Source: Fidelibacterota bacterium
GTDB lineage: Bacteria; Fidelibacterota; UBA8477; JABMPR01
Reading direction: 5' to 3'
DNA: 64,000 nucleotides
NCBI GenBank assembly: GCA_016844945.1
Contig: JAERTJ010000187.1
Span: forward strand, 1-64,000
The notes below the pieces were generated by a model that saw only the letters and a list, made by a program, of their open reading frames with translations, ran no database searches and had not been told where the DNA came from. A program made the translations under genes and the position numbers. Of the stretch, positions 15,389-18,376 are shown piece after piece. Numbering within the stretch: the first letter of the stretch is position 1; each line of letters starts with the position of its first letter.

Positions 15389-16336
15389 CTACATCTCAGG
15401 GTATATAATCACCTTGTTGTCGACAGCGGGAACGCTCATTAGATAATCATAAATGGCACCAAGATCACTGGAATCCATCTTTGCATAATAAGTCCACGGC
15501 ATGATGGTATTTATTTGACCTTTTACAAGTGGGACACGGCTGGCTGCTTCATTATCAAGAGCTTTGAAGCGTTGGATGAATCCCCGACGAGTCCAATTCT
15601 TAATGCCTGTCTCATGGGGCGTGATATTGGCTGAACTAACCTGTCCTCCTGAGGGCATCCCCATGGTGAACCCACCTGCAAATTCCATCCCTTTAACCGG
15701 TCGACCTTTTTCCATGGGTGTATGGCAATCAGCACAACCTGCAGCTATGGTCATATATTTCCCGTAGGCAATACGATCAGAGGGATATGGCAGAACACCA
15801 AACTCAGCCTGTTTAGGCATGGTTCGCACAATCAGGTTTAGGGGGAAGTTGAGTTTGCGCTTTGGTATATTATTTTCAATAGGTTCCAGGGTACGAAGAT
15901 ATGCCACCATACTATAAATATCCTCTTTACTCATATGGGCATAGTTTGGATACGGCATGATGGGAAAGAGGGGGGTACCATCCCTGGAAACTCCACATAC
16001 GATGGCTCGTACAATTTCACCATCACTCCAGGAACCCAATGCAGCTGGTGTGATATTGGGTGTATAAATATTACCAGGTGCTCCAGCATCTTCATTAAAT
16101 AATTCACCACCAGCTCCGTGAGTCCCAGATTTTACAGGGGCTGTAAACAGGGACCAGTCGCGTTGGCTATGACAATCAGTACAACCTGACACCTGCTCTA
16201 CCAGATATTCACCCCTTGCCAAACGCTCAGGAGTGCCTTCAATCTGAATATCTTCTGCAGGATCGACTTTAATGGGTAGTACTAAGCTGCAGGAAACCAG
16301 ACTGATGATAAGTCCAATTGAAACGATGATTCTCAT
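15389..16336 (-). CDS. Di-heme cytochrome c lipoprotein
   Basis: 315 residues. A strong GGAGG precedes the ATG. Residues 1-16 are a lipoprotein signal with lipobox LVSC (Cys16). Two heme c sites are present: CTDCH at 52-56 and CADCH at 201-205, each within a class I cytochrome c domain; axial Met candidates include MPYPNYAHMSKEDIYSMVAYL and the matching IMPWTYYAKMDSSDLGAIYDYL in the second half. This layout matches periplasmic electron carriers feeding dehydrogenases or oxidases. No redox-enzyme gene is adjacent, so the partner is unknown. Confidence 0.88.
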   Translation of the reverse strand: MRIIVSIGLIISLVSCSLVLPIKVDPAEDIQIEGTPERLARGEYLVEQVSGCTDCHSQRDWSLFTAPVKSGTHGAGGELFNEDAGAPGNIYTPNITPAALGSWSDGEIVRAIVCGVSRDGTPLFPIMPYPNYAHMSKEDIYSMVAYLRTLEPIENNIPKRKLNFPLNLIVRTMPKQAEFGVLPYPSDRIAYGKYMTIAAGCADCHTPMEKGRPVKGMEFAGGFTMGMPSGGQVSSANITPHETGIKNWTRRGFIQRFKALDNEAASRVPLVKGQINTIMPWTYYAKMDSSDLGAIYDYLMSVPAVDNKVIIYPEM

Positions 16337-16406: not shown

Positions 16407-16964
16407 TTATAGGAGTCGATTGTCTGCAAATGAATAGCAAGAATTTCTACTGATAATTAAATGATCAAGAAGTGATACATTGATCGACGTCAGGGCGGCT
16501 TGCAGATCCTTTAATATTTCACGATCACGTTTGTATAATGCAGATGAACGAGTCGGTTGGTTTTGAACAAAAATCACGGATGATGCTTCGCTAGCCACCA
16601 CTTTTTCTAATATCTCAGGCGTATAAATATCTGGTGCTGTAAGCGTGATATCACAGATCTCTTCCCAATTGATTACATCATTATTTTCATCCAGAAGTAT
16701 GATCAGAAACAGATCTCGATTCTTATCTGGAATGTTTTCTGAAAGAAATTGAGAGACAGCCTTGCTTGAGTTAAGACACTGCTTATAACCGCGCGCTGCA
16801 AAGAGGTGGCGACTTCCCACTTCTTGCTCCTCATTCAAGATATATTTGCCATGATCAGCCCGCCGTGCAGATTTTTTCTGATTATCTGATCCAGCCGATA
16901 ATGGTATAAAAAGGCTACAATTGGTGATGCAAAATGCCACAATGACTAAAGCAATGACTCTCAA
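16407..16964 (-). CDS. RadC/JAB-like lipoprotein lacking the metal ligands
   Basis: A clear paralogue of the radC product encoded 0.6 kb upstream, with an N-terminal export signal in place of the helix-hairpin-helix. I place the start at a TTG (16962-16964) preceded by GGAG 5 bases upstream; this gives MRVIALVIVAFCITNC, a compact lipoprotein signal. An upstream in-frame ATG at 17012 would add 16 residues. The JAB part lines up without gaps with RadC at the active site, but the HNHPSG motif is QNQPTR and the later S-x-x-D is K-R-D: two zinc His are lost, Asp is kept. The C-termini remain alike (LLDHLIISRNSCYSFADNRLL). Expected to be inert as a metalloprotease and periplasmic. Role unknown. Confidence 0.75.
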   Translation of the reverse strand: MRVIALVIVAFCITNCSLFIPLSAGSDNQKKSARRADHGKYILNEEQEVGSRHLFAARGYKQCLNSSKAVSQFLSENIPDKNRDLFLIILLDENNDVINWEEICDITLTAPDIYTPEILEKVVASEASSVIFVQNQPTRSSALYKRDREILKDLQAALTSINVSLLDHLIISRNSCYSFADNRLL

Positions 16965-17131
16965 GTTTTCTCCGGTTTTTCCTGTAAAGCTATAGGTGAT
17001 AATATAAGTCATTATTAAGTATTGTCAAGAGAAGGCAGAAGAATCAGGTCTGTAAAACCAGTATAATTAATAATATGCGGCGAAGACATGAGGTTGTCCT
17101 GAATATCAGAAGGGACCCTGACCAGCCTGGG

Positions 17132-17422
17132 TTAGTCAGGCATAATTTCTACTATCAAGTTCTTCCATTCAGGATTGCTGGTTTCAACAAGTTGTATCTT
17201 CTTAGCTCGTACCCAACCCGTAATTTGTTTCTCACGCTTGATTGCCTGGTCGGGATCATCAAATTCTTCAAAATATGCCAGTACATTAATGCTGTATCGT
17301 TTTGTAAAACCTGATTTTTGTCGACTAATGTGTTCCTGGACCCGTCGGGACAAGTTATTTGTGATACCCGTATTTAGTGTTTTCGATCGATTCGTCATGA
17401 TATGGACATAATATTTTTCCAT
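17132..17422 (-). CDS. GIY-YIG domain endonuclease-like protein
   Basis: 96 residues, a single GIY-YIG domain of the YhbQ/UPF0213-like type. The first strand is YYVHIMTN in place of GIY, then LNTGITNNLSRRVQEH carries the second motif (TGIT for YIG) and the conserved Arg; KREKQITGWVRAKKIQLVE supplies the Glu-containing helix. Stand-alone proteins of this group are widespread and mostly uncharacterised. The short palindromic element just upstream may hold or disturb its promoter. Confidence 0.85.
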   Translation of the reverse strand: MEKYYVHIMTNRSKTLNTGITNNLSRRVQEHISRQKSGFTKRYSINVLAYFEEFDDPDQAIKREKQITGWVRAKKIQLVETSNPEWKNLIVEIMPD

Positions 17423-17439
17423 GTATCATTCCCTTCATC

Positions 17440-17540
17440 GTCATTCTGAGTGTCACGAAGGATCTTGACCCTCTCCAGGGATTACGTGAAAATCAAGATT
17501 GCGTCCATGGATCGAGATTCATCGTTGTACTCAGAATGAC
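17440..17540. repeat. Palindromic intergenic element with 12-bp perfect inverted ends
   Basis: GTCATTCTGAGT (17440-17451) returns as its exact reverse complement at 17529-17540. The ~101-bp interval includes CACGAAGGATCTTGACCC and other self-complementary bits. The opening is like the 'GTCATTCTGAG...GAAGGATCT' repeats scattered between genes of many bacteria. Probably a REP/MITE-like element between the GIY-YIG gene and radC. Only one copy is visible in this window. Confidence 0.55.
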
Positions 17541-17544
17541 CTTA

Positions 17545-18222
17545 CTATAACAGGCGGTGATCGGCGAATGAGAAAAAGTCATTTCCTCCAACGATGAGGT
17601 GATCGAGAACATCCACATCAATGGCGGTAAGTGCAGCTTGTAGCTTTTTTGTCACTGCTCGGTCACTTCCTGATGGTGTAAGAGATCCTGAGGGGTGGTT
17701 GTGAACCAGAATCACACTGGCAGCATTGTAATCCAGAACCTTTTGTACAACCTCTCTGGGATAAATAGCAGAGGTCGTCAATGAGCCTGAAAACAGCTCC
17801 TCCATTTTGATGATTTGATTCTGACCGTCTAGAAAAATGACCATGAATATTTCGCGACTCCGCTCTCGTAAATTATGAGTCAGGTAATCCTTTACGGTTT
17901 TGCTTGATCGGAGATAGTCCTTTCCCTGAGTCTGTTCAAATAGAAAGCGTCGACCTACAGAATGGGGAAGTTTGAGAGCAAACACACTTGATTGACCCAT
18001 GCCGGGGATATCCAGCAGAATTGAAGTTGGTGCTTCCAGTACAGCTGATAGTGAACCAAAGCGTCGCATGAGTTCCTTGGCTTGTGGTTTCATATCCTTG
18101 CGGGGAGTAGCCAGTGTGAGGATCAATTCAAGGACTTCATAATCCTGAAATGATTCAATCCCGTTTTGAAAAAAGCGTTGTCGTAATCTTTGACGATGAC
18201 CTGCATGAATTGCTGATGTCAT
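17545..18222 (-). CDS. radC: RadC-family JAB/MPN protein
   Basis: 225 residues from the ATG at 18222, preceded by AGGGAGG; an ATG at 18258 is less likely. Residues 5-95 carry the helix-hairpin-helix region (DYEVLELILTLATPRKDMKPQAKELMRRFGSLS, then DIPGMGQSS). The JAB metalloprotease-like domain follows, with ligands HNHPSG (His174, His176) and Asp187 in SGSD, plus the Glu of EELF. Long assigned to DNA repair, RadC's activity is unsettled. A secreted paralogue without ligands is encoded downstream on the same strand. Confidence 0.9.
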   Translation of the reverse strand: MTSAIHAGHRQRLRQRFFQNGIESFQDYEVLELILTLATPRKDMKPQAKELMRRFGSLSAVLEAPTSILLDIPGMGQSSVFALKLPHSVGRRFLFEQTQGKDYLRSSKTVKDYLTHNLRERSREIFMVIFLDGQNQIIKMEELFSGSLTTSAIYPREVVQKVLDYNAASVILVHNHPSGSLTPSGSDRAVTKKLQAALTAIDVDVLDHLIVGGNDFFSFADHRLL

Positions 18223-18376
18223 AACATCCTCCCTTGATATACATAGTGATTGTGGCATGCGAAGATGCCTGGAGATAAATCAATCTGAAAATGGGGTTAG
18301 CGAATCAGGTCAATAAAATGATAAAAGTATTTTGGAATGGAAATAATAATTTGAAGAAAAGATTTGATCCAGCTAA

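What the first reader, a model, noticed from the sequence alone, without database searches (positions are those of the whole stretch)
16407..16964. A secreted RadC paralogue that has lost its zinc ligands
The JAB-like domain aligns without gaps to RadC encoded 0.6 kb away, but HNHPSG is QNQPTR (both zinc His changed to Gln) while Asp and the Glu remain. The helix-hairpin-helix is replaced by a lipoprotein signal, with a TTG start and a good ribosome site. A periplasmic, inert JAB protein is very unlike the cytoplasmic role assumed for RadC and may act as a scaffold or sensor.
Basis: partly seen in the sequence, partly recalled or inferred. Interest (0 to 1): 0.75.

Follow-up and report, generated by a model that had tools for sequence, protein, structure and literature searches.

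The report
Exported dead RadC beside a cytochrome
Some marine bacteria carry a second copy of the protein RadC that has lost its metal-binding active site, gained what looks like a signal for export and membrane anchoring, and sits next to a gene for an exported haem protein, so an old enzyme fold seems to have been reused outside the cytoplasm.

Summary
The gene at 16407-16964 (-) encodes a RadC-type JAB domain (Pfam RadC, E 1.5e-23) behind a lipoprotein-like signal. It is not a pseudogene: 6 of the 18 other genomes of its genus (Ca. Neomarinimicrobiota) hold orthologues, all with a TTG start, a Cys at position 16 and a broken JAMM site. Four of five JAMM residues differ in 7 of 7 orthologues and in 0 of 38 other RadCs aligned; only Asp147 stays. 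dN/dS is 0.07-0.19 in the 10 of 21 pairs that can be measured. A dihaeme cytochrome c lipoprotein gene follows in 7 of 7; in 9 of 9 genomes with the locus closed up, both genes are missing, and one keeps a scar. Best reading: a radC duplicate exported as an inert JAB lipoprotein that serves the cytochrome as docking or assembly partner. Homology, motif loss, selection and linkage rest on sequence; export and inertness are inferred; the scaffold role is a weaker inference.

The parts
16407..16964 (-). RadC-like lipoprotein gene (TTG start, 185 aa): signal with Cys16, linker, JAB domain from about residue 62
16524..16565 (-). Former JAMM site: Gln134, Asn135, Gln136, Pro137, Thr138, Arg139, Tyr144, Asp147 (HNHPSG...S..D in RadC); range computed from the residue numbers, residues 134-147
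16713..16715 (-). Asp84, at the place of the JAMM Glu; codon range computed from the residue number
16917..16919 (-). Cys16, presumed lipid attachment site; codon range computed from the residue number
17001..17028 (-). Sigma70-like promoter TTGACA-16-TATATT; -10 TATATT in 7 of 7, -35 exact in 5 of 7 and one base off in 2
15389..16336 (-). Dihaeme cytochrome c with lipoprotein signal (LVSC), two CxxCH motifs; 70 bp downstream
17545..18258 (-). Canonical RadC with intact HNHPSG...S..D, likely parent gene
17132..17540 (.). GIY-YIG gene (17132-17422, -) and a 32-nt inverted repeat (17440-17540) between radC and the promoter; not seen at that place in the other six

Best explanation
It is a duplicate of the neighbouring radC in which the N-terminal HhH part was replaced by a lipoprotein signal and the JAMM zinc site was lost. 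The product is exported, lipid-anchored on the periplasmic side of a membrane, and cannot bind catalytic zinc in the JAMM way. It is made from its own promoter together with the next gene, a dihaeme cytochrome c lipoprotein. Most likely it is a non-catalytic partner of that cytochrome: a JAB domain used as docking or assembly surface. Shown by sequence: homology, loss of the motif, conservation, selection, linkage, joint absence. Inferred: export, lipidation, lack of activity, co-transcription. Weakly inferred: contact with the cytochrome and the scaffold role.
For: Fold: Pfam RadC; model matches 2qlc_A, TM 0.88 by target length, rmsd 1.9. Dead site: four of five JAMM residues changed in 7 of 7 and in 0 of 38 other RadCs; HNHPSG intact in 42 of 42 others in the larger set. 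Export: Cys16 after a hydrophobic stretch in 7 of 7, strict lipobox in 4 of 7; signal peptidase II gene present. Function kept: NG86 dN/dS 0.071-0.188 in the 10 of 21 pairs with dS under 2; TTG start in 7 of 7, promoter in 7 of 7. Partner: cytochrome gene next to it in 7 of 7, gap 13 bp in G009, G013 and G018 and 70 bp in the window; both genes missing in 9 of 9 genomes whose held DNA runs from radC to the acyltransferase; scar of the cytochrome C-terminus in G010. Origin: the seven form one clade, 100/100.
Against: No location, interaction or activity was measured. Neighbouring genes can be lost in one deletion without working together. The cytochrome's relatives stand without a RadC-like neighbour elsewhere. 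Selection is looser than on RadC (0.010-0.039) or the cytochrome (0.035-0.069). The window's box ITNC is not a standard lipobox. The placement inside the genus's radC has support 81/84 only, and an origin with the mobile short RadCs is not rejected (p-AU 0.404). Promoter-like sites in the stretch are no more frequent than in shuffles (10 against 11.1). G008, G015 and G017 say nothing on co-occurrence.
Confidence: 0.5

Rival explanations
1. An exported, inert JAB lipoprotein that does something unrelated to the cytochrome, for example binding DNA or peptides at the cell surface; the two genes are neighbours by history.
For: The cytochrome family occurs alone elsewhere; JAB domains of the RadC clade have been proposed to act on DNA (PMC3482391, passage).
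Against: 7 of 7 linkage and 9 of 9 joint absence inside the genus.
Confidence: 0.25
2. The site is not dead but re-made: Asp147 with Gln134 and the new cysteines (Cys63, Cys176, and Cys135 in six of seven) binds another metal, haem iron or a redox partner.
For: Cys63 in 7 of 7 orthologues and 0 of 38 RadCs; Cys176 in 7 of 7 and 2 of 38; Cys135 in 6 of 7.
Against: The window copy has Asn135, so one of the cysteines is dispensable. Cys63 and Cys176 could not be shown to be close: the strand bridge at residue 62 of the model stays when the last 13 residues are cut off. DsbB and VKOR were not found in the genome.
Confidence: 0.12
3. A decaying pseudogene of radC.
For: Long stem and fast evolution (stem 1.04); five or so presence/absence changes on the genus tree.
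Against: Open in 7 of 7, dN/dS well under 1, the same motif changes, start and promoter kept.
Confidence: 0.03
4. Not exported: translation begins at the ATG at 17012, or the hydrophobic start is only a membrane anchor facing the cytoplasm.
For: An ATG at 17012 is in frame; ITNC is a poor lipobox.
Against: The upstream part is not conserved among the seven and the promoter -10 at 17001-17006 lies inside it; the TTG with its ribosome site is conserved in 7 of 7; four of seven have a strict lipobox.
Confidence: 0.1

Closest known systems
RadC family (Pfam PF04002; solved structure 2qlc)
   Same: JAB domain by sequence and fold, ungapped alignment
   Different: No HhH/UPF0758_N part found, four of five JAMM residues changed, lipoprotein-like signal, below the NCBIfam RadC cut-offs
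MPN-minus subunits of eukaryotic complexes (CSN6, RPN8, eIF3f/h, Abraxas)
   Same: JAB/MPN fold without the JAMM motif, kept as complex subunits (PMC3431379, passages). Weak Foldseek hits to EMC and CfBRCC36-CfKIAA0157 entries, E 0.006-0.009, no better than to cytidine deaminases
   Different: Eukaryotic, not exported lipoproteins, another branch of the fold; the same paper says no common role of MPN-minus proteins is established. That EMC8/9 are MPN-minus is recalled
Tox-JAB domains of polymorphic toxins
   Same: JAB domains that leave the cytoplasm (PMC3482391, passage)
   Different: Those are toxin modules accompanied by immunity genes; this is a small stand-alone protein with a broken site and a cytochrome neighbour
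Dihaeme cytochromes c of the same phylum without a RadC-like neighbour
   Same: 48-56% identical to the partner gene product in the five genomes G020, G022, G219, G028, G111 and in G008
   Different: Five of the six loci read start with a membrane helix, one (G111) and G008 with a lipoprotein-like signal; no RadC-like neighbour seen

Membership tests
RadC family | Pfam RadC JAB domain above the curated cut-off | tested here: met
   83.4 bits against 22.1
RadC family | N-terminal HhH / UPF0758_N part | tested here: not met
   Only PF04002 found up to E 1 in the window protein
RadC family | JAMM residues Glu, His, His, Ser, Asp | tested here: not met
   Glu to Asp, His to Gln, His to Leu (6) or Gln (1), Ser to Tyr in 7 of 7; intact in 38 of 38 RadCs of A2; Asp kept in all
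RadC family | NCBIfam TIGR00608 / NF000642 above cut-off | tested here: not met
   78.9 against 133.85 and 89.4 against 180 bits
JAMM (MPN-plus) metalloenzymes | His, His, Asp zinc ligands and catalytic Glu | tested here: not met
   By sequence; metal content not measured
MPN-minus pseudoenzymes | JAB/MPN fold without the JAMM motif | tested here: met
MPN-minus pseudoenzymes | Subunit of a protein complex | not testable with these tools
   Only gene linkage is at hand
Bacterial lipoproteins | Hydrophobic signal with a lipobox | tested here: inconclusive
   Strict box in 4 of 7, relaxed in 7 of 7, window copy relaxed only; in the window 4 of 60 ORFs pass the relaxed rule, this one included
Bacterial lipoproteins | Signal peptidase II in the genome | tested here: met
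   PF01252, 114.5 bits
Bacterial lipoproteins | Lipid-modified Cys16 and membrane location | not testable with these tools
   Needs labelling or mass spectrometry

The most novel reading that the evidence does not exclude
A RadC-type JAB domain has been recruited outside the cytoplasm as a metal-free lipoprotein subunit of a dihaeme cytochrome c complex: a bacterial, exported counterpart of the eukaryotic MPN-minus scaffolds and a RadC relative with a part in exported electron transfer.
Probability: 0.35. Interest if true: 0.8.

Novelty: new variant of a known kind. Interest (0 to 1): 0.6.

Why it matters
RadC is widespread and its function is still open. A natural, selected RadC domain without catalysis and outside the cytoplasm separates the fold from the enzyme and suggests that the domain has a binding function of its own. 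The tight two-gene unit with a cytochrome gives a concrete partner to test in a simple expression system. It would also be an exported bacterial case of the MPN-plus to MPN-minus change known from the proteasome lid and the COP9 signalosome. In the papers I could search I saw no description of an exported RadC (listings, and passages of three papers); most subscription journals are not in that library.

Tried and rejected
Pseudogene: rejected by open frames, dN/dS and shared changes. Sequencing or assembly error: rejected, since six independent genomes share the changes.

Disulphide between the two new invariant cysteines (Cys63, Cys176): not supported. The full model shows a one-residue bridge at residue 62 (model numbering, one less than TTG = 1). 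I cut off the last 13 residues and predicted again; the bridge stayed, so its partner is not the last strand. DsbB and VKOR were not found in the genome, which is 90.69% complete.

Origin from the short mobile RadCs of the same genome: not favoured (2.2 log units worse) but not rejected. Relatives in viral contigs: none by two peptide patterns. Relatives in named genomes: 112 stretches matched a pattern, 7 encoded a relative, 5 Neomarinimicrobiota and 2 Bacteroidota; the two Bacteroidota ones have an intact HNHPSG. Other phyla were not searched with the full profile.

Shared signal peptide between the two lipoproteins: looked similar by eye in the window, not tested.

Full report
The gene. On the minus strand, 16964-16407 reads 185 aa from a TTG, with a GGAG upstream. 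Pfam finds a RadC JAB domain at residues 65-183, E 1.5e-23. It aligns without gaps to the RadC encoded 580 bp upstream, 62 of 145 residues identical. AlphaFold2 gives a JAB domain with block means of 83-98 pLDDT from residue 61 on, apart from one block at 70; the linker after the signal is below 50. Foldseek returns RadC 2qlc first, E 2e-12, TM 0.88 by target length, rmsd 1.9.

Orthologues. A profile of the seven proteins was run over the 245 genomes held for the phylum. Seven hits score 292-352 bits and the next best, canonical RadCs, score at most 156.6. The seven lie in one genus of 19 genomes: the window's own and six of the other 18. Five of the six were also found under names, all MAGs of Candidatus Neomarinimicrobiota. 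Identity to the window protein is 45-49%. All seven are open and all begin with TTG at the aligned place.

The active site. Counted on alignment A2, seven orthologues against 38 other RadC proteins (numbering TTG = 1). JAMM Glu: Glu in 38 of 38, Asp84 in 7 of 7. First His: 38 of 38, Gln134 in 7 of 7. Second His: 38 of 38, Leu in six and Gln136 in the window. Ser: 38 of 38, Tyr144 in 7 of 7. Asp147: kept in 45 of 45. The assignment of the Glu rests on AfJAMM, where the catalytic Glu22 lies on the strand after helix 1 (PMC300881, passages), and on its constancy in RadC; it is not shown by a structure of this protein. In a larger set 42 of 42 other RadC proteins keep HNHPSG. The residue between the two former histidines is Cys in six orthologues and Asn in the window. 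Two cysteines are new and invariant: Cys63 (0 of 38 RadCs) and Cys176 (2 of 38).

Export. Cys16 follows a hydrophobic, uncharged stretch with a positive start in 7 of 7. A strict lipobox is present in 4 of 7; the window's ITNC passes only a relaxed rule that 4 of 60 window ORFs pass. Signal peptidase II is present. The HhH part is gone.

Selection. NG86 dN/dS is 0.071-0.188 in the 10 of 21 orthologue pairs with dS under 2; four more pairs have dS above 2 and seven are saturated. The same measure gives 0.010-0.039 for RadC (10 pairs) and 0.035-0.069 for the cytochrome (5 pairs). So the protein is constrained, but less than its neighbours.

Neighbourhood. In 7 of 7 the next gene on the same strand is a dihaeme cytochrome c with a lipoprotein-like signal, 73-75% identical to the window's, with both CxxCH motifs in 7 of 7. 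The gap is 13 bp in G009, G013 and G018 and 70 bp in the window. Upstream of the RadC-like gene a promoter-like TATATT is shared by 7 of 7 and TTGACA by 5 of 7, with one base off in the other two; by itself the promoter scan of the stretch finds no excess over shuffles (10 against 11.1). In nine genomes of the genus (G001, G002, G003, G005, G010, G011, G012, G014, G016) held DNA runs from radC to the acyltransferase gene and both genes are missing. No close cytochrome orthologue lies elsewhere in them; the best matches are at 38-42% identity or none. In G010 the 105 bp between keep, in the right place and strand, FIQRFKALD and PAIDNTVIKYPE of the cytochrome's end, E 1.1e-5 in a search of 9 stretches with 11 queries. 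So loss is shown there. Three genomes are undecided: G015 and G017 are cut by contig ends, and G008 (63% complete) gave no RadC hit but has a 56% identical cytochrome without such a neighbour.

History. A tree of 49 JAB domains puts the seven in one clade, 100/100, with a long stem, within the genus's radC at 81/84, which is not strong. Grouping with the mobile short RadCs is not rejected, p-AU 0.404. On a tree of the genus from three neighbouring genes, presence needs five changes (4-5 in bootstrap trees), though well supported branches alone force only one. With the scar this fits an old gene pair lost several times; repeated gain is not excluded.

Mechanism. The best reading is a non-catalytic, exported JAB lipoprotein that serves its cytochrome neighbour as docking or assembly partner. 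The precedent is the MPN-minus subunits, which keep the fold without the motif (PMC3431379, passages); that paper also says that no common role for them is established. The cytochrome family does not need the partner elsewhere, while the RadC-like gene was never seen without the cytochrome (7 of 7). That asymmetry suits an accessory subunit, but it is seven loci in one genus.

Known or new. The fold is known and so are inert members of it. A RadC relative with an export signal, a consistently rebuilt motif and a cytochrome partner is, in the papers I could search, undescribed. PMC3482391 (passage) says that prokaryotic JAB domains known before it were intracellular and adds toxin JABs that are not. 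I file it as a new variant of a known kind.

Noticed in passing
window 17132-17540: A GIY-YIG gene with a 32-nt inverted repeat (78% complementary, GTCATTCTGAG ends) sits between radC and the RadC-like gene here. A GIY-YIG reading with similar repeats lies after radC in G014, and a relic of one in G012, so this small element may move into the same spot repeatedly; the genome has 11 GIY-YIG matches.
   Followed up: partly
L002, L003, L004, L005, L006 (contigs C111, C199, C134, C180, C163 of the window's genome): The genome holds at least five further short RadC proteins (open frames of 149-180 aa, no room for the HhH part) with intact HNHPSG; two lie near contig ends.
   Followed up: partly
L020 1396-1500 (G010): A 105-bp scar between acyltransferase and radC keeps two pieces of the cytochrome's C-terminus, showing that the gene pair was once there.
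   Followed up: yes
L068, L069 (Bacteroidota): Two canonical RadCs with intact HNHPSG share a Cys at the place of Cys176 (NECYSFADN), so that cysteine alone does not mark the exported form.
   Followed up: no
L099 (G008): A lipoprotein-like dihaeme cytochrome c, 56% identical, has a gene for another c-type cytochrome-like protein (CTLCH) overlapping its end instead of a RadC-like neighbour.
   Followed up: no
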